Source: Acidobacteriota bacterium
GTDB taxonomy: Bacteria > Acidobacteriota > Terriglobia > Terriglobales > Acidobacteriaceae
Length of the DNA stretch: 47,767 nucleotides
Assembly: GCA_021819585.1 (NCBI GenBank)
Contig: JAKAQS010000004.1
Coordinates: 1 to 47,767, forward strand
Reading direction: 5' to 3'
Under the pieces are notes generated by a model, which saw nothing but the letters and a program-made list of their open reading frames with translations, was not told the DNA's origin and ran no database searches. Both the position numbers and the translations under genes were made by a program. Of the stretch, positions 1 through 40,690 are shown piece after piece (the stretch's first letter is position 1; each line of letters opens with the position of its first letter).

Positions 1-467
1 CTTACGCTCTGGCGACTCTCGGGATCTTCGGAATCCTCGCGGTCACCGAAAAGCAACTGGGCAACGATCGCATCTCTGACCTCGCCGGCCTCAGCCGCCG
101 AGCGCCCTTTCTCTCCGCCTGTCTCTTCGTCTTCGTCCTCTCGCTGGCCGGAATCCCCCCGCTCTCTGGCTTCTTCGCGAAGTTCTTCCTCTTCGTCTCT
201 CTTCTCACCGTCGATCCAGGATCGAAATTGCTGCTGTGGCTCATCATCCTGGCCATCGGTATGAGCGCGGTCTCGCTCTACTACTACCTGCGAGTTCTGA
301 AGAGCGCCTTCGTGGCCGACGCGCCGCCGGAGGCCGCCCCAATCCAATCCACCATGCTCATGCGCCTGCTGGTAGGGGCGCTGGCCGGAGGAGTGATCCT
401 TCTGGGATGCGCCCCCGAACTGATCCTGAATCAGATCCTGAAGGTGATCCACGCCTCCGGCCTCTAA
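1..467 (+). CDS. nuoN: NADH-quinone oxidoreductase subunit N, C-terminal part
   Basis: This is the 3' end of a gene that begins before the window; the frame is open from base 3 to a TAA at 465-467, about 154 residues. NuoN is a membrane-arm subunit of respiratory complex I and one of the antiporter-like proton channels. The family signature AGIPPLSGFFAKFFLF is plainly present, followed by hydrophobic helices, one of which contains SLYYYLRVLKSAF as usual for the NuoN C-terminus. The rest of the nuo operon presumably lies upstream, with nuoN as its last gene, because the genes that follow are unrelated. The identification is firm; only the N-terminal part is missing because of the window edge. 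Confidence 0.95.
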   Translation, partial: YALATLGIFGILAVTEKQLGNDRISDLAGLSRRAPFLSACLFVFVLSLAGIPPLSGFFAKFFLFVSLLTVDPGSKLLLWLIILAIGMSAVSLYYYLRVLKSAFVADAPPEAAPIQSTMLMRLLVGALAGGVILLGCAPELILNQILKVIHASGL

Positions 468-669
468 AGCGATTCCAGGATGTCTATCCCCAGAAGCCAT
501 CACCCTCCAGCCGATGCGGCTGATCGGGAGCCGCGTTCTGGAACACGCTCAAAACCGGTGCGCCGGCCCTGGAATCTCGTCTCAACTTTTCAGTTTTTCA
601 GTCTCAGACCACTCGCAACATCTCGAAGGTCTTCATTTTTCATAGAAGCCCAAGAGACGGAGCGAACTC

Positions 670-8604: not shown

Positions 8605-9654
8605 CTAACGCTTGTCGGGAATCGCAGCCCAGATGGCGGGGTCTTCATCTCCCAGATCCCAGGCGCAGACTCCCTGAATTCCGTACTGTTTGGCAAGATT
8701 GAAGCGGTCCATGAAGGCGCGCTGATTCGTATAGAAGACCCACTCGCGCATCTGATCGCGGTCGATGTAGAACCAGGGTGTATGCTCCACCGCGTCCCAT
8801 TGAGTCTTGCCGCCCCAGGTATCGCGCAGGTGGATCGCCGCCGGCTCCGAGATGTACTCCGCAGTGGGGTTGGGGGTATGGTTTTTACCGTTGAATCCAG
8901 GGTCGCCCGTATACCAGTGATACCCGTAGAGGGCTATGCCCAGCGACAACTTGTTGCGAGGAACGAACTGAAGCGCGTAATCCACATTTTGTTTGGTCCA
9001 GGTCCAACCATCCACAGGACCAGGAACGGTCCAGCGGGTGTTCTGGTCATAGGTCATCAGGCAGATGAGATCCACGGATTGAGCCAGGGCTTTCAGATCA
9101 TAGCCGCCGCGCCACTCCTGGAAAATCCAGGTGCTGAAACCGGAAGCTCCCGGGTATCCGGGTGCGTTCGGAACCACGTCGATCTGCACCTGGAGATGCT
9201 GCTGGTGAAGCGCATCCGCAATCTTCTTCACCATTGAGGAGAGGCCATCCTTGTCCGTCCACATGACATTTTCGATATCCAGATTCACACCGTCGTAGCC
9301 GTGGTTATGACATTCCCGCAGCAGGGACTGAATGAGCGCCTCCTGCGCCTTTTCATCACCCACGAGAACGTGAAGCTGTTCGTGGTTGAAGAGAGCGAAG
9401 AGAGGAATGATCTTCAGGTGCGCCTCTTTGGCTGCCTTGAGAACCACCGGCTGCGGCTCACCGCTCACCAGGCCGTTCTGGTCGAAGTGGTACCAGGTGG
9501 GCGAGATGATGTCGATCTTGTCCATGTGAGCGAGAAAGGAGGCAACTGCGGCATCCTGATTGCCAACCCAAAACTCCGTCTTCTGGGCATAGGCCAAAAG
9601 AGTGCCCAGCCACAGCGCGGCTCCTGCCACGAGCTTTGTTCCTTGCTTCTTCAT
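8605..9654 (-). CDS. secreted glycoside hydrolase family 18 protein (chitinase-like / spore-cortex type)
   Basis: This is a 349-residue protein predicted to hydrolyse beta-1,4-linked GlcNAc polymers or their fragments outside the cytoplasm. ATG 9654 has a good ribosome binding site (GGAAAGGA). The N-terminus is a signal peptide (basic MKKQGTK, hydrophobic core, cleavage near AYAQ). The rest is a GH18 barrel. The catalytic strand is YDGVNLDIENV, in which Glu128 is the expected acid and Asp126 its partner; the first Asp of the usual DxxDxDxE motif is kept (D121) and the second is Asn. LICLMTYD and GVCAWDLGDED are further GH18 strands. The DGVNLDIE form resembles YdhD/SleL-like GH18 enzymes more than classical chitinases. 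It is followed upstream in the same direction by nagA (152-base gap), placing it in the GlcNAc locus. Confidence 0.88.
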   Translation of the reverse strand: MKKQGTKLVAGAALWLGTLLAYAQKTEFWVGNQDAAVASFLAHMDKIDIISPTWYHFDQNGLVSGEPQPVVLKAAKEAHLKIIPLFALFNHEQLHVLVGDEKAQEALIQSLLRECHNHGYDGVNLDIENVMWTDKDGLSSMVKKIADALHQQHLQVQIDVVPNAPGYPGASGFSTWIFQEWRGGYDLKALAQSVDLICLMTYDQNTRWTVPGPVDGWTWTKQNVDYALQFVPRNKLSLGIALYGYHWYTGDPGFNGKNHTPNPTAEYISEPAAIHLRDTWGGKTQWDAVEHTPWFYIDRDQMREWVFYTNQRAFMDRFNLAKQYGIQGVCAWDLGDEDPAIWAAIPDKR

Positions 9655-9806
9655 TGCGATCCTTTCCGGTGAAATCGATTGAATAAGGCAGAGCGCGGCT
9701 CTTTCTCGCGCCGCTGCAGGCCGGGGAAGAGATGACCGTTCCAGAGAGCAAACCAACCCGCGCGAGGAAGCCTCTTTTCGGCATTCCCATTCGGGTTCCA
9801 ACTCCA

Positions 9807-10940
9807 CTACTCTACTTGCCGCCCGTCGATGATGCCCCCAATGCGGCGACCGCTCGCATCGAAGCGGTTGAAGTTTGCCGGAGCCCCTGCCGCGATCTGT
9901 GTCAGGGGCGTCATTCCCATCAGCCGCGCCGGGTTGCGTGAAGCCAACCGCACCGCGGTTTCAAGCGAGGTTCCGGTAAACCGCTGCAGGTTGGCCACTG
10001 CACGGTCCATGGTGAGAACACTGCCGGCCAACGTCTCTCCGGACAGACAGACGCCGTCCTTCACGACTACCTTTAGATCGCCCAGAGTGTAGGTTCCATC
10101 CGGAACGCCAGTGGCCGAGATTCCATCGGTCACCAGGATGGCCCGCTCCTCGCCCTTCATCTTCAACCACAACCGGATCACAGCCGGATGTACATGGACT
10201 CCGTCGCAGATCGCTTCGGCGTAGATGTCATCGCGGTCCAGGAGCGTGCCGACGATACCCGGCTCACGATGGTCCAGCGCGCGCATCGCGTTGAAGAGGT
10301 GCGTCGAACTCCTGGCTCCCGCGGCAATTCCCGCCAGTGTCTGCGCCTCCGTGGCCATGCTGTGCCCCATCGAGATCCGCACCCCCTGGGCCGTCGCGTG
10401 CTCGATCAATTCCAGCGCATGCGGCAACTCCGGCGCCATGGTGATCAACCGGATGTGTCCTCGCGCCGCGGCCTGGAAGCGGTCAAACAGGTCGATGCTC
10501 GGCTCCTGAAGGCATGCCTCCGGATGAACGCCACGCTTGGCATGGGAGACGAAGGGGCCTTCCAGATGGATTCCCACCGGAGTCGCCACCGGCCCCCCGG
10601 AAGCATGCGGACGCGGCCGCTCAATCGCATCCGCCAGACGCTCCAGCGCCTTCAGGGTCAGATCCAGCGGAGCCGTCACCGTGGTGGGGAAGTAATGCGC
10701 TACTCCATGCGAAGCAAGGAAGCGTCCAGCCTCTGCGATCCCCTCCTGATCGGCCACCATAAAGTCAAATGACCTCGCGCCATGGACGTGAATCTCAAAG
10801 AACGCAGCCGTCAGCGTCTCGGTCGACCCGTTCTCCGGTCCCTCTTGCACGCTGACGATCTTGCCGTCTTCCACGGACACAATCGGATACGCCAACTCGC
10901 CCGTATCGGTAATCAATCTTCTTGCAATAATCTGCTTCAT
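9807..10940 (-). CDS. nagA: N-acetylglucosamine-6-phosphate deacetylase
   Basis: This is a cytoplasmic amidohydrolase of about 377 residues that converts GlcNAc-6-phosphate to glucosamine-6-phosphate and acetate. The metal-site strand FEIHVHGARSFDF appears near residue 50, then HLEGPF (metal-binding Glu), GHSMATEAQ (His), SSTHLFNAM (His) and VTDGISATG (catalytic Asp), all in the expected order. The C-terminus reads ASRNPARLMGM as usual for NagA. A GTG lies directly before the chosen ATG (10941-10943), so the start could be one codon longer. It is divergent from the GH20 gene, and the 240-base gap between them probably holds promoters for both. It delivers the substrate of the SIS deaminase encoded at 14333. 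Confidence 0.95.
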   Translation of the reverse strand: MKQIIARRLITDTGELAYPIVSVEDGKIVSVQEGPENGSTETLTAAFFEIHVHGARSFDFMVADQEGIAEAGRFLASHGVAHYFPTTVTAPLDLTLKALERLADAIERPRPHASGGPVATPVGIHLEGPFVSHAKRGVHPEACLQEPSIDLFDRFQAAARGHIRLITMAPELPHALELIEHATAQGVRISMGHSMATEAQTLAGIAAGARSSTHLFNAMRALDHREPGIVGTLLDRDDIYAEAICDGVHVHPAVIRLWLKMKGEERAILVTDGISATGVPDGTYTLGDLKVVVKDGVCLSGETLAGSVLTMDRAVANLQRFTGTSLETAVRLASRNPARLMGMTPLTQIAAGAPANFNRFDASGRRIGGIIDGRQVE

Positions 10941-11151
10941 CACCCGTACCGCTCTCTATCCATCATGGTTCCACTTCAGCACAAGCGCCGCCTGGCCTCT
11001 TGATTTGAAGGTCACTGCACAAGTCTCAAGCACAGCCCTACTTTGGGCCATGAACTCAATCGTCTCCGGTCTTCCTGGCAACTTTCCATGAACATGGAAG
11101 AACACTCTGTTCCTATCTTGCTAAAATAGCTCGAAAGTTTGCGCATTTCAA

Positions 11152-11180: not shown

Positions 11181-13355
11181 ATGCTCATTCCGCTTCCCGC
11201 ATCTGTCGGGACAGGACGCCATGTCCCGCAGCCCAACTCTCTCCGTCTGTCTCTGGCAACCCTGCTGATCTTCGCCCTCAGCCCAACGGTACAAGCCTTG
11301 GCGCAAGGTTCCGCAGCCCCCAGCCCCATGCTCTCTCCTCAACCGAAGCAGATCCAAACCCAAGGTCTGGTTCCCGTCCATGCCGCGAATGTGATGGTTC
11401 CCGGCGGTAATCCCGAGGATCTGTTTGCCGCGCAAAATCTCAACCAGACCCTGCGCCGCAGCGGGATCGTTGTTTCGCCTGCGGCGGGTCCCGTGGATCT
11501 GACTGTCACTCTTCTGCGCGCCGGCTCGACCCAGGCAAACGAGATCCTGACGGATCATCATCTCGCCTTCGACGAAGCGATGCATGACGAAGGTTACGTT
11601 CTTGTCTCGCAGAAGGACGCATCCGGTGGAGATGCTGTGGAGATCATTGGTGAAACTTCTGCTGGAGTTTTTTATGGAGTCCAAACGCTCAAGCAACTCC
11701 TCCAGGACGCTAACGGCGTTCCCTCCGTGTGGATCGCCACCATCCGCGACTGGCCCAGCATGAAGTACCGCGGCGAAGACGACGATCTTTCTCGCGGCCC
11801 ATTTCCGACCATGGCCTTCATGAAGCATCAGCTTGAGGTCTTTGCGGCCCACAAGGTGAATCTTTACTCTCCATACTTTGAAAACACTCTGGAGTACGCT
11901 GACGATCCCCTCGCCGCGCCTCCGGGAGGAGCCCTCACCCGAGAGCAGGCCAAGCAACTTGCGGCCTTCGCCGGCCGTCTGCACATCATGATCGTGCCCG
12001 AGCAGGAGGCCTTCGGCCACGTCCACCATGTACTGGAATTTGAGAAGTATGCCGATGTGGCAGAGACGCCGCACGGCTACGTCCTCGCTCCCGGCCAGGC
12101 TGGATCGCTTCCCCTGATCAAGAGTTGGTTCACGCAGATCGCCGCTGACTTTCCCAGCCCCTTTCTGCACATTGGTGCCGATGAGACCTTTGAACTGGGT
12201 ATGGGCCGCACCAAACCCGCCGTCGATCAGCGCGGCCTCGGTCCGGTCTACGCCGACTTCCTCGCTTCCATCCACAACACCCTGGCCCCGCTTCACCGGC
12301 GTCTGCTCTTCTGGGGTGACATCGGTGACTCGGATCCATCCGCGATTCCAGGGATTCCCAAAGACATGATCGCCGTCCCTTGGATCTACTGGCACGAAGA
12401 CAGCTACGACCACGCCATCCTTCCCTTCAAAAAGCAGGGCCTGGAGACCTGGGTCGCCCCAGGCGATGACAACTGGAACGTCGTCTTTCCCATCGAGAGT
12501 ACAGCTCTGGACAACATATCCGGGTTTGTAGCCGCCGGTCAGCGCCTGGGCAGCACTGGCGTGCTGACCACCGTATGGGATGACGACGGTGAGGGCCTCT
12601 TCAATGAAGACTGGTTTGGTGTGCTGTTTGGGGCCGCTGCGGGATGGCAGCCGGGCAAGGCGGACGCTGCCGCCTACCAGGCATCCTTCGGCCCCATCTT
12701 CTTCGGAGATACCTCAGGAAGCATCAACCAGGCCATGGCGGAGATCATCGCCGCCGAAAATCTGATCGACGTCAGCGATCGAGTTTTCTGGCTTGATCCG
12801 TGGAGCCCGGCCGGCATTCAGGAGGGCGACAAGTTGCGCGCCAACATTCCCGCCGCCCGTCTGCACGCGGAAAATGCTATCAATCTGATCGAAACGGCCT
12901 TGGCGAGCCAGCCTTCGCTGCGCGAGAAGAACGCTCTTCTGGCCATGGATCTCGGCGCGCGCCGCATCGACTTCATCGGCCTTAAATTTCAGTTGTCCGA
13001 TGAGATTCGCGATGGCTATGCCCAGGCCTACGCCCTGCAAAAGGATCCCTCCAAGAAAGAGATCGTAGGGAATAGTCTGGATGAAATCAGCAGCAATAAC
13101 GGCAAATGCCAGGATATCCGCGACGGGTACTCCCTGCTCAAGACGCTCTATCGCCAAACATGGCTGGCTGAAAACCGGCCTTACTGGCTGGACAACGTCC
13201 TGGTGCGCTATGACCTGCGGACTCAGCTCTGGCAGAGCCGGGGAGAACAGATCAGCGCCGCCATGGACCAGGCCTATCAAACCCACCAGTTGCCGACGGC
13301 ATCAAGCCTCGGCATCCCAGGGCCGGTTTCTCCATCGACGGAAACGCAGAAGTAG
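11181..13355 (+). CDS. secreted beta-N-acetylhexosaminidase, glycoside hydrolase family 20
   Basis: This 724-residue exported enzyme should remove terminal beta-linked GlcNAc or GalNAc from glycans or chito-oligosaccharides. ATG 11181 follows a perfect AGGAGG. A signal peptide is visible (residues 20-42, LSLATLLIFALSPTVQALAQ). The N-terminal GH20b-like domain (about 50-185) ends in AGVFYGVQTLKQLL, then comes the catalytic barrel. The catalytic pair is in HIGADETFELG (Asp334, Glu335), the family's HxGxDE motif. The C-terminal 250 residues are mostly helical and longer than in minimal hexosaminidases. It is the outer-most step of the GlcNAc locus and is divergent from nagA. Its stop lies six bases from the stop of the convergent DeoR-type gene. 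Confidence 0.92.
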   Translation: MLIPLPASVGTGRHVPQPNSLRLSLATLLIFALSPTVQALAQGSAAPSPMLSPQPKQIQTQGLVPVHAANVMVPGGNPEDLFAAQNLNQTLRRSGIVVSPAAGPVDLTVTLLRAGSTQANEILTDHHLAFDEAMHDEGYVLVSQKDASGGDAVEIIGETSAGVFYGVQTLKQLLQDANGVPSVWIATIRDWPSMKYRGEDDDLSRGPFPTMAFMKHQLEVFAAHKVNLYSPYFENTLEYADDPLAAPPGGALTREQAKQLAAFAGRLHIMIVPEQEAFGHVHHVLEFEKYADVAETPHGYVLAPGQAGSLPLIKSWFTQIAADFPSPFLHIGADETFELGMGRTKPAVDQRGLGPVYADFLASIHNTLAPLHRRLLFWGDIGDSDPSAIPGIPKDMIAVPWIYWHEDSYDHAILPFKKQGLETWVAPGDDNWNVVFPIESTALDNISGFVAAGQRLGSTGVLTTVWDDDGEGLFNEDWFGVLFGAAAGWQPGKADAAAYQASFGPIFFGDTSGSINQAMAEIIAAENLIDVSDRVFWLDPWSPAGIQEGDKLRANIPAARLHAENAINLIETALASQPSLREKNALLAMDLGARRIDFIGLKFQLSDEIRDGYAQAYALQKDPSKKEIVGNSLDEISSNNGKCQDIRDGYSLLKTLYRQTWLAENRPYWLDNVLVRYDLRTQLWQSRGEQISAAMDQAYQTHQLPTASSLGIPGPVSPSTETQK

Positions 13356-13361
13356 CCTGGG

Positions 13362-14147
13362 CTAGGCCAGAACCACTTCAATTCCCCGTGCCGACAACTC
13401 GTCCTGCATCCGGCGAGGCAGGTTGGTATCGGAGACCAACATATGGATGGAGGAGATGGGGCAGATCAGCGCAGGGCTGACCTCTCCCATCTTCTCCGAA
13501 TCCGCCACAATGATCACCTTTTTGGCGTTGCGTATCATCGCCTGGGAGACTGCGGCCTCCTCCGCCTCCAGCGTGGTCACGCCGCGCTCCAGATCGAAGC
13601 CGGTAATCCCAATAAACGCCTTGTCCAGGTACACCTCGCGCAGGAAGTTCAGCGCGGGCTGCCCGGCCAGGGCGAAGGTCCACGCCCAGGCCAGCGTCCC
13701 GCCCGTCAGCATGGTCTTGATCGCCGGTTGGTTGCATAGCTCCATTCCAATGTTCACCGCATTGGTAATCACTGAAATGCCACGGCGATGCCGCAGGGAG
13801 CGGCCAATCTGTGTTGTGGTGGTGCCGGCCGTCAGGCCGATCGTCTCGTGTTCCCCAATTAACTCACTGGCCGCCACCCCAATCCGCCGCTTGGCCTCAA
13901 CTGAGCGCAACTCCCGGGCCTGAAACGACGTATCATGCCGAAACGGCTCATAGAGCAATGGCTCGACCAGTGTAGCGCCGCCATGCGTGCGCAGCACCAG
14001 ACCACGTCTTTCCAGCCGCGCCAGATCCCTGCGAATGCTCGGCGCCGAGGCCCCAAGCTGGTCCACCAACTCCTGGACTGAGATATCCCCCGCCCTCAAA
14101 AGGGCTTTCATGATGCGATCGCCGCGCACATCCGTCTTTGTAGACAT
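13362..14147 (-). CDS. DeoR/GlpR-family transcriptional regulator, probable repressor of the GlcNAc locus
   Basis: This 261-residue protein has the full DeoR architecture. An N-terminal winged helix (about residues 5-60) carries VQELVDQLGASAPSIRRDL and RLERRGLVLRTHGGA, the family hallmark. A C-terminal sugar-phosphate-sensing domain follows, with LTAGTTTTQIGRSL and FIGITGFDLERGVT resembling the phosphosugar isomerase-like fold. The gene sits between GH20 and the divergently transcribed SIS deaminase, 185 bases from the latter, the usual place for a local repressor. Its likely effector is a GlcNAc-derived phosphosugar such as glucosamine-6-phosphate. That is inferred from context; other acidobacterial GlcNAc loci may use different regulators. 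Confidence 0.9.
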   Translation of the reverse strand: MSTKTDVRGDRIMKALLRAGDISVQELVDQLGASAPSIRRDLARLERRGLVLRTHGGATLVEPLLYEPFRHDTSFQARELRSVEAKRRIGVAASELIGEHETIGLTAGTTTTQIGRSLRHRRGISVITNAVNIGMELCNQPAIKTMLTGGTLAWAWTFALAGQPALNFLREVYLDKAFIGITGFDLERGVTTLEAEEAAVSQAMIRNAKKVIIVADSEKMGEVSPALICPISSIHMLVSDTNLPRRMQDELSARGIEVVLA

Positions 14148-14332: not shown

Positions 14333-15475
14333 GTGTCAACATCTTCCTCTCCTACGCCCTCCCCTTTTGCTCATTGGATGCTGCGCGAGATCTTCGAACA
14401 GCCGGAAACGTTCTTGGCCACCATCCAGCACTACGTCGCGGACGGTAACTTTCGCACCGAAACCTGCGCGGCCATCGTCGAGTGGCTGGAGCGTGTGCGC
14501 ACCAAGATCGTGATCGCCGCCAGCGGCTCCAGCCGCCACGCAGGGCTTCTGGCCGAGCTTTTGATCGAGGATCTGAGTTCCATTCCGGTGGATGTGGAGT
14601 ACGCCAGCGAGTACTCGTACCGTCAAGAGAAGTCCTTGGCAAACAACGCCGTTCTGGTGATCTCCCAATCTGGCGAGACCGCCGACACCTTGGCCGCTCT
14701 GCGCAAAGCCAAAGCGCTGGGCAACCAGACGCTGGCGATCACCAACGTGGAGGGATCCACGATGGCTCGCGAAGCTACAGTCTTCTTCCCCACCCTGGCC
14801 GGTCGGGAGCGCGCCATTCCGGCGACGAAGAGCTTCACCGCTCAGTTGCTCAACCTTTACCTTCTTGCTTTGATGGGCGCCTTGGCCCGCAAAACGATGG
14901 ACGCCGAGGAGATCAGGATGCGTTTGGCGGAGATGGAAGCTCTTCCCAGTCTGGTGGAGATGCAACTACGCGGCTGGGAGGAGTTAATTCGCCGCATCGC
15001 TGAAAGCTATCGCGCAACCAAAAACTTCCTCTTTCTCGGCCGCGGAGTGCATTACCCCATCGCCCGCGAAGGAGCGCTCAAACTCAAGGAGTCCGCCTAT
15101 CTGCACGCGGAAGGATATCCGAGCGGGGAGTTGAAGCACGGCCCCAACGCTTTGGTCTCCCCAGCCACGCCCCTGGTGATGATGGCCACCGTGGACTGGG
15201 CGGCCCCTGACTCGATCCTGCGCTATGAGAAGGTGATTCATCTGATGCGAGAGATGCGCCGGCAGGGGGCCGGCATCCTCGCGATCGCCAACGAGGGCGA
15301 CAAAACCGTATCCGCCCTGGCCGACCACACTATCACGGTGGCTCAAGTGCGCGAGCCTCTGCTGGCCATCTGTGAGACGATACCTTTGCAGCTTTTCTCC
15401 TACTGGATGGCCACCAACAATGGAGTCGACGTCGACCATCCTAGAAATCTGACCAAAGCGGTGCTGGCGGAGTAG
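14333..15475 (+). CDS. SIS-domain glucosamine-6-phosphate deaminase (NagB-II type)
   Basis: This 380-residue protein corresponds to the isomerase half of GlmS without the glutaminase half. Such proteins act as glucosamine-6-phosphate deaminases, giving fructose-6-phosphate and ammonia. Two SIS domains are visible. The first has ASGSSRHAG and VLVISQSGETADTLAALRKA, the phosphosugar-binding loop, almost as in GlmS. The second has ALKLKESAYLHAEGYPSGEL followed by KHGP. The end, DVDHPRNLTKAV, also matches GlmS. The start is a GTG at 14333 with only a weak AGAGA before it. It is followed after 42 bases by the kinase gene, so the two probably form an operon under the DeoR-type regulator. No classical NagB is encoded in the window, so this enzyme probably completes the route from NagA. 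Confidence 0.87.
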   Translation: MSTSSSPTPSPFAHWMLREIFEQPETFLATIQHYVADGNFRTETCAAIVEWLERVRTKIVIAASGSSRHAGLLAELLIEDLSSIPVDVEYASEYSYRQEKSLANNAVLVISQSGETADTLAALRKAKALGNQTLAITNVEGSTMAREATVFFPTLAGRERAIPATKSFTAQLLNLYLLALMGALARKTMDAEEIRMRLAEMEALPSLVEMQLRGWEELIRRIAESYRATKNFLFLGRGVHYPIAREGALKLKESAYLHAEGYPSGELKHGPNALVSPATPLVMMATVDWAAPDSILRYEKVIHLMREMRRQGAGILAIANEGDKTVSALADHTITVAQVREPLLAICETIPLQLFSYWMATNNGVDVDHPRNLTKAVLAE

Positions 15476-15517: not shown

Positions 15518-16468
15518 ATGGCGTTCTTTTTAGCGCTCGACGTAGGCGGCACCAAGACCGATTATCTGCTGGCCGATGAATCGGGTGTGCTTTGCCGCGC
15601 GCGGACGGGAACCATCAAGCGGATGCGCGCCGATGCATCCTCTGCCGCTGCCAACCTGGATCAGGCTTTGGCCGAACTCACGGCCAAAAGCGGCGTCTCC
15701 ATGCAAGCCATCACGCGCACCTGCATTGGAACAGCCGGAGAGACCGTACCTCTGGTCACCGATTGGTTGCGGCAGGCATTTTCGGTCCGCGTTTCGGGCG
15801 AGCTTCTCCTGCTTGGAGATGTCGAGATCGCTCTGGATGCCGCGTTCCACGGCAGGCTCGGAGTGCTTGCCATAGCAGGCACGGGCTCCAACGTCGCCGG
15901 CCGCCGGCCGGATGGCTCCATCGTCACCGCCGGTGGCTGGGGCCCCGAACTCGCTGACCAAGGCTCGGGCCACCGGATCGGCCACGAGGGCCTGCGCGCC
16001 GCTTTTCTGGCTCGCGACGAAGGCCGGCCCACCCGCCTGATCGACGCCGTCCTGGCGTTCTGGCAGCTACCCTCCATCGAGCTTCTGGTCGAGGCCGCCA
16101 ACGCTCGCCCTGCGCCCGACTTCTCTCGCCTCACCGAGGTCATTCTGGACTGCGCCAGGCAGGGTGATGCGGTCGCCAACGAAGTCCTCCGCCGCCAAGG
16201 CGAAGAACTGGCCGGGCTGGTGCGCCTGGTGGTCCGCCGGGTGCATGCGGCGTCCGTCGCTGCAAGCTCCAGCGGCAAAGCCGAACTTCCCAGCGTGGCC
16301 TTCACCGGCTCCATCATGGAGAAGGTTGCACCCGTCCGCGAAGCCCTGGTGACTGATGTCCGTTCAGAGTTTCCAACCATCCATGTCCGGGAGGGAGTAG
16401 TCGATCCTCTGCTTGGGGCTCTGTGGCGCGCCCAGAACCCGGCGCTGCCGTCTCGCCAAGGCTGCTGA
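15518..16468 (+). CDS. BadF/BadG-family sugar kinase, probable N-acetylglucosamine kinase
   Basis: This 316-residue member of the ASKHA fold resembles animal-type NAGK and would phosphorylate GlcNAc to GlcNAc-6-phosphate, the substrate of NagA. The phosphate-1 loop is LDVGGTKTDYLLAD at the N-terminus. The phosphate-2 and adenosine regions include AIAGTGSNVAGR and GGWGPELADQGSGHRIGHEG, the latter very like the NAGK sugar- and ATP-binding strand. ATG 15518 has GGAG upstream. It lies immediately behind nagB-II. The presence of a kinase suggests that free GlcNAc is imported by a permease rather than a PTS; no sugar permease is encoded in the window. Confidence 0.85.
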   Translation: MAFFLALDVGGTKTDYLLADESGVLCRARTGTIKRMRADASSAAANLDQALAELTAKSGVSMQAITRTCIGTAGETVPLVTDWLRQAFSVRVSGELLLLGDVEIALDAAFHGRLGVLAIAGTGSNVAGRRPDGSIVTAGGWGPELADQGSGHRIGHEGLRAAFLARDEGRPTRLIDAVLAFWQLPSIELLVEAANARPAPDFSRLTEVILDCARQGDAVANEVLRRQGEELAGLVRLVVRRVHAASVAASSSGKAELPSVAFTGSIMEKVAPVREALVTDVRSEFPTIHVREGVVDPLLGALWRAQNPALPSRQGC

Positions 16469-20299: not shown

Positions 20300-21217
20300 C
20301 TCTTCCACGGCCCTTACGCCCTTACGATTGTAGCCTCTGTGACATCGGCCCATGAGCCGCGGATGGGTGTTGTCCCAGATTGGCTCCGTAGAGGCGGGTG
20401 GCCCGCAGATCATCCACTCTCCATCAATTCGCGAGGCGGGCGCCCCACATCTTGCTCTTCAAAATTTGTTTTGACAGCCCTCGGCGAGCCTGGCTTCATA
20501 CCTCTGCCGTCAGGCGCCATCAGCTTCGTCGATTGCCGGCCAAATCCGGCCTGGCTGAGGCTACCCGCGTTTTTGGGGGGCTCCTAAGGCGTCCCGCGTC
20601 TCAGACCGCTCTGGGCGCCTGCTCTCCAAGCACAAACGGGATCCACCTGGGGGACTGGGGAAGTTTGACGGGCGGCAACCCAAAGTGATTGAGTGCCGCG
20701 GGTCACGCTTTTGAGCGTCAAGACTCTGGACATCCTTCCGATTTTCCTATCGGGAAGACGCGATCCAGTCTCCGTTTCGCAATTTCTTCGGCAACAAGCA
20801 ACACGCTCCTCCGCCCACCCTTTCGAGCGGCAGTCTGAGCGCCATGGCGGAGATGCGAGGGCGCCGGTTGACCTCCAGCGCCCTCGCATGCCGCCGAAGC
20901 GGGAACTTACGCAGCTCCGATTCCGGCCCGTACCGCGGGAAACCTGTGGCCATACCCCGAACCGTCTTTCGAACTATGCTCTCATCGCCGGCAAACTGCG
21001 TGATCTTTCGCGCCATGGTCGCGATGGCTCAAGATCGAAGTCTCCTCGGCATCCATGCAGAATTCCTCTGTTTGTGCAGAGTTTCCCCCAATCCGCTGCC
21101 TGTTCGGCCCGCTTCACGGGGACTGCACCCTCTGCTCTTTCTTCATGCCTCCTGGTAGCGCTCATCTTTATCCTCTGCAGAGCGTGTTGTATGGATTTTC
21201 CCTACGCGGCCTAAGAG
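20300..21217. other. 918-base stretch without a convincing gene
   Basis: Several open frames of 70-170 codons exist on both strands but none has a recognisable family, a good ribosome binding site or a natural amino-acid composition. The left end should carry the sdaA promoter. A copy of GGCGCCCCACATCT lies at about 20438-20451, and an imperfect hairpin CTTCCGAT/ATCGGGAAG lies at about 20734-20758. This may be decayed coding DNA. Confidence 0.5.
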
Positions 21218-22909
21218 TTAGTGGTTGCAGTCATTCGTCGCGCCGGTTAGCACATCGCTGGCCGAGGTGAGCGTCTCGCTGTAGCAGTTGCCGAGGGAGT
21301 CGTTCTTCCGGTAGGTCTGCGAGGACTTGGTGTTGGAGGGCGCAAATGTGTTCAGGTTCAAGTCATCCTGCGATTGCGTCTCCTCAAAAGTTCTCGAGGT
21401 GAGCGGACGCATTCCGAACAAATGCTGCATCTTGGTCAGCTTGTATTGCTGGTCCACGCTGGTGTTCTGATAATAGTAGGCGCCGGCCGTGTTGTACGCA
21501 TAGGTGTAGTTGATCTTCAGCGGATACGTATACCTCTGCTCACTCGTGCTGGCGATGTGTCCCTTCTGTGTGGTGACGTGCAAATCCACTGTCGTCAGTT
21601 GTTGAATGTTCTGTGTGTCCGGCGAATCTGTAGTGGGGTTCACGTCCACCTCCTGCGTGTTGCTGAAGTCGACCTTTTCGTCCAGGGTGGTCTCCACGCG
21701 GCCTTGCGAGGTGTCCACATAGCCCCTGATGGTGAACTCGCGGTTGGAGGTTACGGACAGCATGCCGGTATAGTCTCCGGTGGCCGAGTTGAAGGAGATG
21801 TTCTCCTGCGTCTGTGGCGTCGGAGCCGCGGAAAGAGTGTTCTCTTCCACGCCGCCCGTCACCTTCTGGCTACGGTGATCCAAATAGACGAGCAGGTTGG
21901 CTGTAGCCAGGAAGTAAGAGTTGGCATTGAACACACTCAGGGCCACGGTGTGCATCTGGCCATCGGCGAGCAAACCGGCGAAGGGGGTCAGATTCACTCG
22001 GTACGGCTTGAAGTCGAGCGTCTGGTTGGCCGGGATCGGACGCCACAAAAACGGGTCGATGCCGCCGGTGAAGATCCACGGGTAGACCGGCGCTACGCCG
22101 GCGGGATTGCCGTCAAGGGTAATCTCCGTCTCGCGAAAGGCCGTGCCTCCAAAGCTCAGCAGATTGTTCGCCTCGTTGCTCGGCACGTCGAAGTAGAAAA
22201 ACTCATCGTTGCTCTGGTTCTGTGCGATCACGTCGAGATAAACGGCCTCTACATTCTCCGGCAGATTCAGGGCCTGCGAGATCGTGCTGGAGGTTGTGTT
22301 CAGCGTGCCCGCGTCGCCACCACTCCCGTTCACCGGCACCACCATGTCGGGCACAACCGGCGCTGGGTTGGTAAAGTTCGCCGGATAAAACTCAAGCGCC
22401 GCATTGGCGTAAATGATGCCGGTGTAAGTCGAGTTGACCAGGTTGCCCAGATTGGCTTCGCCCACTTGGTCTGACTTGAAGATTGCCGACAGGTCAGTGA
22501 CGTCCCGCTCCACGTGCCAAGAGGGGCTGAAGCTCGCGCCTGGTTCAGCGGTGGTGCCATAGAAGATGTTGGCATGGCCCAGATAGAAGGCCGCCGTGCG
22601 GTCGTACTGCACGCCGGCGGTCACAGTAAAATCCGCAGTGAAGACAACCTTGGCCCAGGGGCCTGGACAGCCCGCGGGTGGGGTGTAGCTGAAGCTGGCC
22701 GGAGTGAAGCCTTCAAAGGCCAGGTTCGTGAAAAGCTTTACGGTGCATGGCTTGGTTGAGGGGCGCGGAACGAGCGGTTGGGCCGATACGGGATCCGACG
22801 AACCAATCTGTGGCGTGGTGGGCGCAAGGACGACCTGCGAGCTGGCGAGACCGGCGGAAAAAGCCGTCAGCGCCGCAAGCGCAAGGGGAGCGAGCACAGT
22901 CTTATTCAT
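21218..22909 (-). CDS. secreted peptide-N4-(N-acetyl-beta-glucosaminyl)asparagine amidase, PNGase A type
   Basis: This 563-residue exported enzyme is predicted to cleave the bond between Asn and the first GlcNAc of N-glycans, releasing intact glycans. ATG 22909 has GAGGAA upstream and begins a signal peptide (NKTVLAPLALAALTAFSAG). Family-specific stretches of plant-type PNGase A are clear: TAAFYLGHANIFYGTTAEP, WHVERDVTDLSAIF, PWIFTGGIDPFLWRPI, LDFKPYRVNLTPFAGLL and ATANLLVYLDH. The C-terminal 180 residues are less familiar. Acidic PNGases of this family have been described from Terriglobus, so activity in an acidobacterium is plausible. Released glycans could be trimmed by the GH20 enzyme and fed to the Nag pathway, though the genes are about 5 kb apart. 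Confidence 0.88.
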   Translation of the reverse strand: MNKTVLAPLALAALTAFSAGLASSQVVLAPTTPQIGSSDPVSAQPLVPRPSTKPCTVKLFTNLAFEGFTPASFSYTPPAGCPGPWAKVVFTADFTVTAGVQYDRTAAFYLGHANIFYGTTAEPGASFSPSWHVERDVTDLSAIFKSDQVGEANLGNLVNSTYTGIIYANAALEFYPANFTNPAPVVPDMVVPVNGSGGDAGTLNTTSSTISQALNLPENVEAVYLDVIAQNQSNDEFFYFDVPSNEANNLLSFGGTAFRETEITLDGNPAGVAPVYPWIFTGGIDPFLWRPIPANQTLDFKPYRVNLTPFAGLLADGQMHTVALSVFNANSYFLATANLLVYLDHRSQKVTGGVEENTLSAAPTPQTQENISFNSATGDYTGMLSVTSNREFTIRGYVDTSQGRVETTLDEKVDFSNTQEVDVNPTTDSPDTQNIQQLTTVDLHVTTQKGHIASTSEQRYTYPLKINYTYAYNTAGAYYYQNTSVDQQYKLTKMQHLFGMRPLTSRTFEETQSQDDLNLNTFAPSNTKSSQTYRKNDSLGNCYSETLTSASDVLTGATNDCNH

Positions 22910-23424
22910 TGCGGGTTCCTCGTGGTGAAAGTGGGACTGAGGCGAAATAGTAGCACCAGAAGCGACTCTTGAAAACAACAAAATGAGGGGGGTGATCCTG
23001 CGCTTTGTATGCAAAAAATTGCGGCCTTCAGCCTCTATGAGTACGGCTGGGAGGCAGGTAGCGCGTGTTGCTCCCGTTCGGGTTCAGCAGACGCGCCATG
23101 CAGCCGGATACCAACATGCGAGGCTTGCTGCCAGTGGTTTGCATGGCGGATGATCTTTGCACCACCAGGATAGCGAACCGTCCCATTCCCCGGATCTGTT
23201 CGTCGGAATCCCTGCCGCCTTGCATGACTGCACTCAGCATGGGCGACCGCGCCTGTTCGCTCTTGGCAGAGACATGAGGGCGGCTACCCGTCCGTTTGCT
23301 TTTGCTTTCGGATAGCGCGGTAAGCGCGCTTGACGATGGTTCACTTACAAAAATAGGCGGCCCGATTCTTTCGGAAACGGGTCGACCCGCCGCACCATTT
23401 GCAACTCCATGCTGGACATCACCA
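22910..23424. other. 515-base stretch without a firm gene
   Basis: The part next to 22909 should hold the PNGase A promoter. A minus-strand frame at 23028-23240 (70 codons, with GRFAILVVQRSSAMQTTG) reads somewhat like protein but matches no family I know; it could be a remnant of a larger gene or chance. The rest lies downstream of the lipoprotein gene. Confidence 0.4.
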
Positions 23425-24615
23425 CTACTGGACCATATTTGTTGCTCCCTGGCTGAGTTGCACTACCGAGTTGGAATTGTCGTCGTTGAAGAAGACCTTC
23501 TGCGTGGCCAAGGTGGTTCCTTCCGTGGCGATGCCAAAGATAGCTCCCGCATTACCGCTGTCCACGGACATGGTTCCAACCTCCATACCGGTTGCCGGGT
23601 TGATCTCCACCATATTGTTATCGCCGGTATTGCCTACAATCAAGTCACCGTTGTAAAGCAAGGCTGAACTTATGGGATAGTTGAGCGGCATGCCTGAGTA
23701 CACCACCCGTGCCTGACTGGCGGCCGGACCGCTGAAGGTCAAGGTCGTGGATGTAGAGGATCCCGAGGTGGAATAGCCACCTGATCCCATATCCATTGAG
23801 CTGGCCGATACCGTTATGCCGTTTGCTGGAACGGTGGACACCTTCGAGATGGCCACGATCGAGTCCGTGTCGGAAGAGACGATATACAAAGTGTCCGAGT
23901 TTGGATCGTAGGTCAGCCCGGCGGGCGCAAGAATGCCATATTGTTTGGAGACCGTGGACGGAAAGTCTGTGACGATCTGATGAAAGACGAAACCAGTGCT
24001 TGTGATCTGTACCGCGACGATGGATCCGTTGGCGGCCTGCGAGATATAAAAGGCAGGATTCGCCGTAATACCACTGGACGCGGATGGAGAAGCGAAGATC
24101 TGCCCCCACGGCTGATCCCAGGAAAAGTTGGACGCCAAGGTGGTCTTGACCACGCCAGTAGGTTCGACGATTGGATTGTCGTTGGCCGTATAAGCCGCAA
24201 CCCATATGTTATCCGTAGAACCCAGTGCCAGCGCGTCGCAACCAGCGATGTTGGAACTTTGGGCGATTCGTTTGGGCATGGAGCCCGCGGTGGGAGAGAG
24301 ATCCTCAATGGTCGTTCCAGCGCCGGAGGTTCCGGAACTGTTGTTGAAGTTACAAACAATCAAGTCACCCGCGTTGATGGGCCCCGAGGCCGCCGGTGCG
24401 ATGGCAAGGCCGTAGGGATTGTTATCGCCATTTTCGGGATCGACTGTGGATCCGATCGTCGTTTTGGCGGTGAGCTGACTCAGAACGCTCGGAGTTGACC
24501 CCATCATTCCAGAGCTGCCTGACATGGAGTTGGATGACATACAGCCTGTAAATAACAAGCCGCAACAAAGTGTTGAACAGCACATGGCAAAACCGGAAAC
24601 ACCTTTTGAAAACAT
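23425..24615 (-). CDS. lipoprotein with predicted beta-propeller repeats, function unknown
   Basis: This 396-residue protein has a lipoprotein signal peptide ending in LFTGC (lipid-carrying Cys25), so it is an envelope lipoprotein. A flexible Ser/Gly/Met-rich linker follows (MSSNSMSGSSGMMGS). The body is made of repeated strands such as NPYGLAIAP, DNIWVAAYT, AGLTYDPNSDTLYIVSSD and GDLIVGNTGDNNMVEINP, typical of NHL/YncE-like beta-propellers that bind ligands or proteins. ATG 24615 was preferred to a GTG two codons upstream. No catalytic motif is visible, and the neighbours do not suggest a specific role. Confidence 0.75.
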   Translation of the reverse strand: MFSKGVSGFAMCCSTLCCGLLFTGCMSSNSMSGSSGMMGSTPSVLSQLTAKTTIGSTVDPENGDNNPYGLAIAPAASGPINAGDLIVCNFNNSSGTSGAGTTIEDLSPTAGSMPKRIAQSSNIAGCDALALGSTDNIWVAAYTANDNPIVEPTGVVKTTLASNFSWDQPWGQIFASPSASSGITANPAFYISQAANGSIVAVQITSTGFVFHQIVTDFPSTVSKQYGILAPAGLTYDPNSDTLYIVSSDTDSIVAISKVSTVPANGITVSASSMDMGSGGYSTSGSSTSTTLTFSGPAASQARVVYSGMPLNYPISSALLYNGDLIVGNTGDNNMVEINPATGMEVGTMSVDSGNAGAIFGIATEGTTLATQKVFFNDDNSNSVVQLSQGATNMVQ

Positions 24616-24855: not shown

Positions 24856-25785
24856 CTACTGCGAGGCGGCATCATCCTCGAAGAAGTCGTTGTCGACGCG
24901 CTTGACGACGTAGGTGCTCTCAGCGGAGATGCCGACATCGAAATCGAACATAAACGCAGCCAATTCCGTACCGTCGATGAGAATGACCTTCGTTTCAAGG
25001 CTGCTGGCGTACTCGCGGGCGTCCTTCGTAAAAGTAGACGTTGTGAGAAAGATCCCCTTCCGCGCCCGTTTGCCAAGCAGGGCACCGACGAACTTCTGAA
25101 TCTCAGGACGGCCAACACTCGCGTCATCCCATCGCTTCGCCTGAATGTAGATCTGTTCCAGTCCGAGCCTGTCTTCCTTAATAACGCCGTCAACGCCGCC
25201 GTCACCTGACTTGCCAATCGCCTTTCCAGCGTCGGCTAACGTGCCGCCATAGCCCATGGCCGAAATCAGCTTAACCACCAGCCGCTCAAAGAACTCTGGT
25301 GAACAGTGCTTGACCCGCTCAAGCGCGTCTTCTTCAATCTGCCTCCGCCGATTCAGGTAGCCGGTAGCCATCAAGTCGTCGGGAGTGTCTGTTTCAACAG
25401 CCAACACAGCGGCTTCGCTCTCCTCCGATGTCGCCGTTCGCGAACGTCTCTGGAATTCAATAAACTCAGGGAACCTGCGAAGAAAGGCGTTGTCGATTCG
25501 CTCGGGCTTCTCCGCCAATATCTGTTTGCCACGGTCGGTGATGCGGAACTGGCCGCGCTGAACGTATTCGATGAGGAGGGCATGTTTGATGTAGGTCCGC
25601 GCCCATCCAACCCGATTGTCGAAAATCTCTTGCTTGCCGCTTGGAAGCAGTTCCTTTCGTTCCGACTCAGTGAGCCCAAACTGCACGGCGAGTTCGGTCA
25701 CCGCATCGCGCTTGGTATGTATCTTGCCGTCACCGGCTATCTTCAGCAGCGGCAGCATCAGGGTCTGGTAGTCGGGTATCGGCAT
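24856..25785 (-). CDS. mrr: Mrr-type restriction endonuclease
   Basis: This 309-residue protein has the two-part Mrr layout. An N-terminal winged-helix domain (about residues 5-95, TLMLPLLKIAGDGKIHTKRD) is followed by a C-terminal PD-(D/E)xK nuclease domain (about 155-280). The nuclease site is in SGDGGVDGVI (Asp199) and YIQAKRW (Gln215-x-Lys217), the QxK form characteristic of Mrr enzymes, which cut methylated DNA. The start ATG 25785 has GGAG upstream; a frame extension beyond it lacks a better start. A GACCC-AAC-GGGTC palindrome lies 19 bases upstream and could be an operator. No methyltransferase gene is adjacent, which fits a modification-dependent enzyme. It is flanked by gene-poor DNA, suggesting acquisition by transfer. 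Confidence 0.9.
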   Translation of the reverse strand: MPIPDYQTLMLPLLKIAGDGKIHTKRDAVTELAVQFGLTESERKELLPSGKQEIFDNRVGWARTYIKHALLIEYVQRGQFRITDRGKQILAEKPERIDNAFLRRFPEFIEFQRRSRTATSEESEAAVLAVETDTPDDLMATGYLNRRRQIEEDALERVKHCSPEFFERLVVKLISAMGYGGTLADAGKAIGKSGDGGVDGVIKEDRLGLEQIYIQAKRWDDASVGRPEIQKFVGALLGKRARKGIFLTTSTFTKDAREYASSLETKVILIDGTELAAFMFDFDVGISAESTYVVKRVDNDFFEDDAASQ

Positions 25786-26536
25786 CGGCTCTCCGTTCTG
25801 TTTGACCCAACGGGTCGCGGGCGATTTCCGCACACTCAGACCGTCAGCGTCGACAGAATGGCCGCACGGAAATTTTCGTCCCGAACCGATGCGAGTCGTG
25901 ATTGCTTGTAGGATTCCAACTGTCTATCGCTCCGCCGCATAGACCTTGGGTTTGACTCGATGAGCTGGTGATGGGACTCAACGAAGCAGGAACTGGTTCT
26001 TGGACCGAAGCGGCTGACAAGACTCTGAATGCATGATGGTTGTAGCGAAGCGTCTTTTCAACAGTCCTGCGTGACGGCATAGAGCAAGGGCAAACGCGTC
26101 TTAATTCCCATCGCTGAGCATTCCGAGCTTGTAGTTGCGACCCCACGTGGCGGCGAGGCGTTTTCCGTGAACGCTGAGCCTGAAGTTTTTGGCCTGTTTG
26201 AGGGGACTCAGGGCGATGCGGTTGAAAGGAGGCGGATCCAAGGCCTCCGCTCTCGCTCTCAAGAATACGAAGCATGCCCCCCTAAGGTGGACTTCAGGCG
26301 GGTCCGTCTTACGCAACCGAGTGGCGGCGATGGAGATCCTAAAATTCCAAATCTCGATTCGAGCGGGAGAGACGGGGCGTCCGCTTATGGCCCAAAACTT
26401 GGTACGCCGCGCTTTACAAGCACTGAGCCGCCCCCCGCTCGACGACCGGCCGAATCCTGATTCAACCACTGAATTGAAAGCAATGCGCGGAGAAATTGTT
26501 CGCCCCCCCGCTGCGCTCCAGGAGCCCTTGTCGCCG
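25786..26536. other. 751-base stretch without a supported gene
   Basis: This region lies upstream of mrr and downstream of the esterase gene. Open frames on both strands are low-quality and overlap each other. No inverted-repeat ends, transposase fragment or tRNA end was seen. It may be decayed DNA at the edge of an acquired segment. Confidence 0.45.
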
Positions 26537-40245: not shown

Positions 40246-40690
40246 CGGGGCGGAGGATGAACTCAGATTGGGCTCTGAGCCCGGAACGGTTCGGAAGGCC
40301 CAACTTCGCGGTCTTGGCTGCGGATGGTTCAAACCGGGCCTTGTAGAACAACTCACCGTCAGACCTGGCATGAGGGCTTCCCTCCGCCATGCGCAAGGCC
40401 TGTTCCCGGGGTGAGGCCGCGGCTGATTCGGCTCACGGGCGCATGGATGTCTAAGGGTTCAGCAGGTGACCGGCGTTGCCTGCGGCCCCATGAACTGGAG
40501 TATCTCAGCCTCGTGATACCTTCACTCCCGTGCCCGCTTGCACGCAAACGCTACTTCTGCTCGCGCCGCGGTATCCTTATTCCGCGCAGAAACTGAACCT
40601 CTACCCTGGAATGTGGTTTTCTCTCCACATTGCAGAGCGGTTGACTCAGACGCTTCAATGCAGTGCAACGAACAAGATAGGAGATCCTTC
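40246..40690. other. 445-base stretch between glgE and the GH13 gene
   Basis: The region contains the short palindrome GGGCT-CTG-AGCCC about 30 bases past the glgE stop and a TTGACT near 40638 that could be a -35 box, without a clear -10. No gene is supported; the frame of the downstream gene is open from 40538, but family similarity and the signal peptide begin after 40691. Confidence 0.45.

What the first reader, a model, noticed from the sequence alone, without database searches (positions are those of the whole stretch)
21218..22909. Plant-type PNGase A in a bacterium near a GlcNAc pathway
The family is mainly known from plants and fungi, with acidic forms in Terriglobus and a few other bacteria. 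Together with GH20 and the Nag enzymes it suggests the organism feeds on N-glycoproteins of plants, fungi or protists. The C-terminal 180 residues, rich in Thr, Asn and Tyr, are not explained by the catalytic part.
Basis: partly seen in the sequence, partly recalled or inferred. Interest (0 to 1): 0.5.

Follow-up and report, generated by a model that had tools for sequence, protein, structure and literature searches.

The report
Acidobacterial PNGase A glycoprotein-deglycosylating enzyme
The gene encodes an ordinary secreted enzyme of a known kind that cuts sugar trees off proteins; such enzymes are already known from acid-loving soil bacteria, but comparison with related bacteria suggests that it belongs to a wider system for eating the sugars of glycoproteins.

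Summary
The call is right. Window 22909..21218 (minus strand) encodes a 563-residue protein matching Pfam PNGaseA (E 4e-58). A good model (pLDDT 87) superposes on PNGase Bb, solved with a MUXF glycopeptide, over residues 35-563 (Z 35.6). The 'unexplained' C-terminal 180 residues are a normal part of the family: their profile alone finds PNGase Bb (E 1e-13). PNGase A is not exotic here: 59 of 200 sampled genomes of this bacterial family have it, and acidobacterial PNGase H+ enzymes have been made and assayed (PMC4231336, PMC7348039).

The link to the GlcNAc genes is weak at the locus itself: 4.7 kb away, three unrelated genes between, no shared operator found, and the arrangement is lost in a 94%-identical relative. 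Across the family, however, PNGase A is recurrently linked to CutC (12 of 45 genomes holding both; about 0.24 expected). Of these 12 loci 11 have a DeoR regulator, 11 a TonB-type receptor and 8 a GH29 fucosidase. The gene is a new member of a known kind; the recurrent locus is the only mildly new point.

The parts
21218..22909 (-). PNGase A-type peptide:N-glycanase gene, 563 aa
22838..22909 (-). probable Sec signal peptide, residues 1-24 (judged by eye; no signal-peptide program run; pLDDT under 50 for residues 1-23)
21839..22747 (-). PF12222 catalytic region with the two jelly-roll PNGase fold, residues 55-357
21221..21856 (-). C-terminal all-beta domain, residues 352-563 (PF25156 below its cut-off at 385-464); matched with confidence only by PNGase Bb
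22917..22921 (-). GAGGA, ribosome-site-like, 7 bases before the ATG
8605..9807 (-). GH18 protein (chitinase/YaaH/CHID1-like hits), nag cluster; the frame's first about 51 residues may not be coding
9807..10943 (-). NagA, GlcNAc-6-phosphate deacetylase
   Evidence: TIGR00221 over cut-off
11181..13355 (+). GH20 beta-N-acetylhexosaminidase with a GADE stretch
13362..14147 (-). DeoR/AgaR-type regulator
14333..15475 (+). SIS-domain protein, GlmS-isomerase/NagB-II-like (below the NCBIfam cut-offs)
15518..16468 (+). NagK-type GlcNAc kinase (best NCBIfam match NagK, below its cut-off)

Best explanation
A secreted acidobacterial PNGase A (the PNGase H+ kind). [quoted passage not shown] The glycan is then trimmed by GH29 fucosidases and GH92 mannosidases encoded elsewhere in the genome and by GH20/GH18, and its GlcNAc enters through NagK, NagA and the SIS-domain enzyme. 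Shown here: family, fold, domain content, and presence of the downstream genes in the same genome. Inferred: activity, acid optimum, export, glycan specificity, and that the nag cluster of this window serves it.
For: PF12222 E 4.3e-58; phmmer to PNGase Bb E 4.3e-59; model pLDDT 87.4 and pTM 0.87; VIA-align Z 35.6, 506 residues aligned to PNGase Bb, then PNGase F-type enzymes and zebrafish Ngly2 at Z 15.7-17.3 over about residues 37-347 only. D103 and E236 are each kept in 34 of 36 aligned members. Own genome: GH92 x4, GH29 x4, GH20 x2 (one reaching a contig edge). In relatives PNGase A lies within 12 kb of CutC in 12 of 45 genomes holding both, expected about 0.24; GH29 is in 8 of these 12 loci but in only 2 of 15 CutC loci without PNGase (the 15 were picked by hand). 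Assayed relatives: T. roseus PNGase H+, optimum pH 2.6, releases core alpha-1,3-fucosylated glycans (PMC4231336: abstract and passages seen); of 13 enzymes tested at low pH six were clearly active (PMC7348039: parts 1 and 2 of 3 read).
Against: No activity data for this protein. Seven of the 13 tested homologues showed only negligible activity, and these include the Silvibacterium, Edaphobacter and unnamed Acidobacteria enzymes, so of the five acidobacterial ones (assignment to the phylum partly recalled) two were active; family membership does not guarantee activity. At this locus the nag genes are separated by three unrelated genes, and the arrangement is not kept in G007 (94% identical PNGase; nagK on another contig). 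The own-genome CutC block is on a different contig, near sulfatases. PNGase A is patchy (13 of 61 genomes, own included) while nagK and GH20 are widespread (40 and 44 of the 61), so the nag genes do not depend on it.
Confidence: 0.8

Rival explanations
1. The protein is a PNGase A homologue with little or no activity on eukaryotic N-glycans in nature, acting on another N-linked or envelope glycan (for example of archaea or of the bacterium itself).
For: In PMC7348039 seven of 13 homologues had only negligible activity on HRP. A Sulfolobus acidocaldarius control genome also matches PF12222, so the family is not limited to consumers of eukaryotic glycans.
Against: PNGase Bb was solved with a MUXF glycopeptide (title only; that MUXF is a plant-type core is recalled) and aligns over the whole length; GH29 and GH92 are in the own genome, and GH29 is linked in relatives.
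Confidence: 0.13
2. The nearness of the PNGase and nag genes in this window is a coincidence of gene order; the enzyme is regulated on its own. (This can be true together with the best explanation.)
For: Three unrelated genes between, some on the other strand; no shared operator above shuffles (a weak test); window-type nagK near PNGase in 1 of 65 loci, GH20, nagA and SIS in 0 of 65; arrangement lost in G007.
Against: Near relative L004 (93%, coordinates as in G010) keeps PNGase-sda-MTase-GT87 and a 43-residue piece of nagK at the contig end; L056 and L130 carry nagK beside PNGase.
Confidence: 0.6
3. A different amidase or adhesin family with only a jelly-roll resemblance.
For: None found.
Against: Sequence, profile and whole-length fold all point to PNGase A.
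Confidence: 0.01

Closest known systems
PNGase Bb (PDB 9vla, complex with MUXF glycopeptide)
   Same: Same catalytic domains plus C-terminal beta domain; Z 35.6 over 506 residues
   Different: 28% identity; its paper was not found ('PNGase Bb' counts 0 in all 25 papers listed of 28), so its source and catalytic residues were not seen
PNGase H+ of Terriglobus roseus and the other enzymes of PMC4231336 and PMC7348039
   Same: Bacterial PNGase A homologues, several of them from Acidobacteria, tested at low pH
PNGase F and Ngly2 (PF09112/PF09113)
   Same: Shared two jelly-roll catalytic fold, aligned over about residues 37-347, Z 15.7-17.3
   Different: No Pfam match to PF09112/PF09113 up to E 0.01; the alignments stop before the C-terminal domain
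N-glycan pathways of Bacteroides massiliensis and Xanthomonas campestris (PMC9522356 and PMC10154615, passages seen)
   Same: Enzymes for glycan release or trimming (fucosidase, GH92, GH20) work together as a degradation pathway
   Different: B. massiliensis uses a group 2 PNGase, a relative of the E. meningoseptica type II enzyme; the acidobacterial loci use PNGase A with CutC and DeoR

Membership tests
PNGase A (PF12222) | Profile match above the curated cut-off | tested here: met
   197.1 bits against 25.3; 36 of 36 aligned members match at E 0.001
PNGase A (PF12222) | Whole-length fold of a solved member, C-terminal domain included | tested here: met
   9vla Z 35.6, model 35..563; C-terminal profile alone E 1.3e-13
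PNGase A (PF12222) | PNGase_A_C domain (PF25156) above cut-off | tested here: inconclusive
   21.7 bits against 27.9; 16 of 36 members match at E 0.001
PNGase A (PF12222) | Conserved catalytic acidic residues | tested here: inconclusive
   D103 and E236 kept in 34 of 36, but their catalytic role is inferred by analogy with PNGase F (recalled) and was not mapped on coordinates
PNGase A (PF12222) | Releases N-glycans, core alpha-1,3-fucose tolerated | not testable with these tools
   needs an assay
PNGase H+ (acid-active acidobacterial PNGase) | Acid pH optimum | not testable with these tools
   needs an assay
PNGase F superfamily | PF09112/PF09113 match | tested here: not met
   no match up to E 0.01
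PNGase-containing N-glycan utilisation locus | Receptor, fucosidase and regulator genes beside the PNGase | tested here: not met
   in this window only the nag cluster, 4.7 kb away; the own CutC, receptor and a second DeoR are on contig C157; met in other genomes

The most novel reading that the evidence does not exclude
Members of this bacterial family carry a recurrent, rearranged N-glycan utilisation locus built round a PNGase A (not PNGase F): PNGase A with CutC and, usually, DeoR, a TonB-type receptor and GH29 fucosidase, sometimes GH92 or nagK, and once GH18 and GH20. In the window's genome the same system is split between this contig and another one.
Probability: 0.5. Interest if true: 0.45.

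Novelty: new member of a known kind. Interest (0 to 1): 0.28.

Why it matters
The enzyme itself adds one more sequence to a useful group (acid-active, core-fucose-tolerant PNGases). The recurrent locus gives a testable answer to why soil acidobacteria keep plant-type PNGases: to feed on core-fucosylated N-glycans of plants, fungi, protists or invertebrates.

Tried and rejected
A shared operator between the nag promoters and the PNGase upstream region: best 16- and 20-base matches were mostly no better than shuffles that keep base composition (deoR-SIS against PNGase, 36 of 40 and 22 of 40 shuffles reached the observed value; nagA-GH20 against PNGase, 12 of 40 and 4 of 40). The test is weak: it found no clear shared site even between the two nag regions (6 of 40 and 24 of 40). 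Sigma-70 promoter scan of 20400-23440: 0 found, 1.0 expected.

Unexplained C-terminal part: rejected, because the domain is in PNGase Bb. For the C-terminal model alone, no other PDB chain came up with E of 0.001 or less in Foldseek; the C-terminal model was not run through VIA-align.

Foreign origin by base composition: PNGase GC3 0.771 lies within the range of 18 other window genes (0.599-0.811).

GH18 of the window as an endo-beta-N-acetylglucosaminidase: not supported by its best PDB matches (probable chitinase, GH18, YdhD and YaaH-type cortex-lytic enzymes, CHID1), not excluded. My first pattern missed its DGVNLDIE stretch, and the pattern found it in 1 of 5 relatives' pieces; the alignment shows that the other four have the like of SGIQFDLE there, so the last D and E of the motif are kept in 5 of 5.

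Papers: searches (listings with titles and starts of abstracts). For a PNGase A locus in Acidobacteria, (at least 4 of 5 terms, 9 papers, all listed; 24 papers, 12 listed) showed no title or start of abstract on it; that is no proof of absence.

Full report
Observation. Window 21218-22909 holds an open frame on the minus strand, ATG at 22909, 563 residues. The same stretch read in frame 1 of the plus strand has stops; another plus-strand frame of 366 residues overlaps it. A GAGGA stretch lies just before the ATG. The N-terminus looks like a Sec signal peptide (by eye) and has low confidence in the model. Pfam PNGaseA (PF12222) matches residues 55-357 at E 4.3e-58, and PNGase_A_C (PF25156) matches 385-464 below its cut-off. 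No NCBIfam model matches up to E 0.001.

Fold. AlphaFold2 on an alignment of 36 sequences gave pLDDT 87.4 and pTM 0.87. PNGase Bb (9vla, with a MUXF glycopeptide) is the top match in Foldseek (E 1.9e-42) and VIA-align (Z 35.6, rmsd 3.5, 506 residues, model 35..563). PNGase F-superfamily structures and zebrafish Ngly2 follow at Z 15.7-17.3 and are aligned only over about residues 37-347. The C-terminal part alone was aligned in 22 sequences and modelled (pLDDT 92.4). Its profile finds only PNGase Bb in the PDB sequences up to E 0.1 (E 1.3e-13), and its model finds only PNGase Bb at E 0.001 or less. So the tail is a normal domain of the family. It is Thr- and Tyr-rich but not Asn-rich relative to the catalytic part.

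Conservation. D103 (in QYDR) and E236 (in DEF/DER) are each kept in 34 of 36 rows; the exceptions are L070 and L014 for D103, and L013 and L014 for E236. L013 and L014 are remote (33% identity) and may be misaligned. That these are the catalytic pair is my inference from PNGase F (residues recalled) and from the Asp/Glu pair of Ngly2 (PMC12753239, passages).

Distribution. PF12222 matches 18 of 396 genomes drawn from the phylum and 59 of 200 drawn from the same family; the protein itself finds 13 of 61 genomes (own included). The assembly is unnamed (347 contigs, 93% complete); the closest named matches are Acidobacteria MAGs (93-100% identity; L006, 100% over 461 residues, is cut by its contig end). 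The own genome has a second PNGase A gene split over the ends of contigs C174 and C345, which share a stretch of sequence. Its N-terminal half falls in a separate long-stemmed clade with four genes of the same genus; in the larger tree that clade also holds genes of other genera of the family. Its C-terminal piece lies near a pro-kumamolisin-type protein, one gene away.

Known enzymes. T. roseus PNGase H+ has an optimum near pH 2.6 and releases core alpha-1,3-fucosylated glycans (PMC4231336, abstract and passages). PMC7348039 (parts 1 and 2 of 3 read) tested 13 enzymes: Xt, Ac and Ka like Tr, Ft and Dj about fivefold better, the other seven negligible; it also says that more than 70 acidobacterial homologues could be found in 2020. 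[quoted passage not shown]

Neighbourhood in the window. The nag cluster is real: GH18, NagA, GH20, DeoR, SIS-domain protein, NagK-type kinase. It ends 4.75 kb from the PNGase gene; GT87, a methyltransferase and serine dehydratase lie between, so a shared transcript is not likely, and I found no shared operator (weak test). In near relative L004 (93%) the order PNGase-sda-MTase-GT87 is kept, with a 43-residue piece of nagK at the contig end; in G007 (94%, L005/L051) only sda is found and nagK is on another contig. NagK occurs in 40 and GH20 in 44 of 61 genomes, far more than PNGase.

Neighbourhood in relatives. One search looked at 65 PNGase A loci (8.6-21.8 kb, a few cut short by contig ends; six from named contigs, the rest; some genomes give two loci, and L008 and L112 have identical proteins). 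With E 1e-15, window-type nagK is present in 1, GH20, nagA and SIS in 0, GH18 in 1, a kumamolisin-like gene in 2. But CutC is present in 7, a TonB-type receptor in 10 (some distant), DeoR in 6, GH29 in 6, GH92 in 3; all 6 DeoR and all 6 GH29 loci are among the 7 CutC loci. So 58 of 65 loci do not have the block. Searching CutC in 200 genomes of the family gave 104 with it: 45 of the 59 PNGase-positive and 59 of the 141 PNGase-negative ones (genome size and relatedness not controlled). In 12 of the 45 the two matches start within 12 kb of each other (2.1-10.8 kb), against about 0.24 expected from genome size (the P-value printed there ignores relatedness and is not to be relied on). Of the 12 loci, 11 have DeoR, 11 a receptor, 8 GH29, 2 GH92, 2 nagK and 1 GH18. 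L130 has DeoR-CutC-receptor-GH29-GH18-nagK-PNGase with a GH20 next to it; its PNGase is in two frames. On the PNGase tree (67 rows, quick method) linkage needs 7 changes, at least 5 on well-supported branches, against 11.3 for shuffled labels: clustered, but gained or lost several times; gene order differs among loci.

Controls and contrary results. Fifteen CutC loci without PNGase, picked by hand, have DeoR in 9, receptor in 12, nagK in 6, GH18 in 4, GH29 in 2. So the CutC-DeoR-receptor block exists without PNGase and is itself often beside nagK; nagK and GH18 are not commoner in the PNGase-linked loci (2 and 1 of 12), GH29 is (8 of 12). The window's closest relatives L051, L104 and L069 have no CutC in their stretches; in G590 the GH18-nagK-GH29-DeoR-CutC-receptor cluster (L136) lies about 390 kb from the PNGase. 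In the own genome the DeoR-CutC-receptor trio is on C157, near two sulfatases.

Mechanism. Most likely: export, cleavage of the GlcNAc-Asn bond at acid pH, uptake or surface trimming of the released glycan, fucosidase (GH29 x4 in the genome), mannosidase (GH92 x4), hexosaminidase (GH20), then NagK, NagA and the SIS enzyme to central metabolism. Genes shown; flow of substrate inferred.

Verdict. Observation confirmed. Identity: PNGase A, new member of a known kind. Interpretation: partly supported. The recurrent PNGase A-CutC-DeoR-receptor-GH29 linkage is the only part that may be new in print; paper searches showed no title or start of abstract on it.

Noticed in passing
own genome C174:18015-19033 and C345:7298-8265 (L061, L062): A second, divergent PNGase A gene split over two contig ends, in a clade of its own; one gene away from a pro-kumamolisin (acid peptidase-type) protein.
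   Followed up: partly
L054:8248-12276 (G015): The PNGase A gene sits between EutC and EutB (ethanolamine ammonia-lyase) genes.
   Followed up: no
control genome Sulfolobus acidocaldarius: An archaeon matches PF12222 and PF09286 above cut-off; a PNGase A-like protein in an archaeon that makes N-glycans itself (recalled) would be worth a look.
   Followed up: no
L070:8017-10503 (G414): A PNGase A homologue with a C-terminal extension (884-residue frame); one of the 36 members matches a bacterial Ig-like domain (Big_3_5), probably this one.
   Followed up: no
window PNGase residues 241 and about 254: A cysteine pair common in other members is absent from the window protein and its near relatives L016, L017 and L069, and from some others.
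   Followed up: partly
window 24856-25833, minus: Mrr-type restriction endonuclease (Mrr_N plus Mrr_cat) near the PNGase gene.
   Followed up: no
window 38200-42436, plus: GlgE-type maltosyltransferase and an alpha-amylase-family gene next to each other.
   Followed up: no
L132, L136, L140, L141: CutC-DeoR-receptor-nagK blocks, with GH18 or GH29 or both, also occur without PNGase nearby, so this CutC may have a role in GlcNAc or N-glycan use rather than copper.
   Followed up: partly
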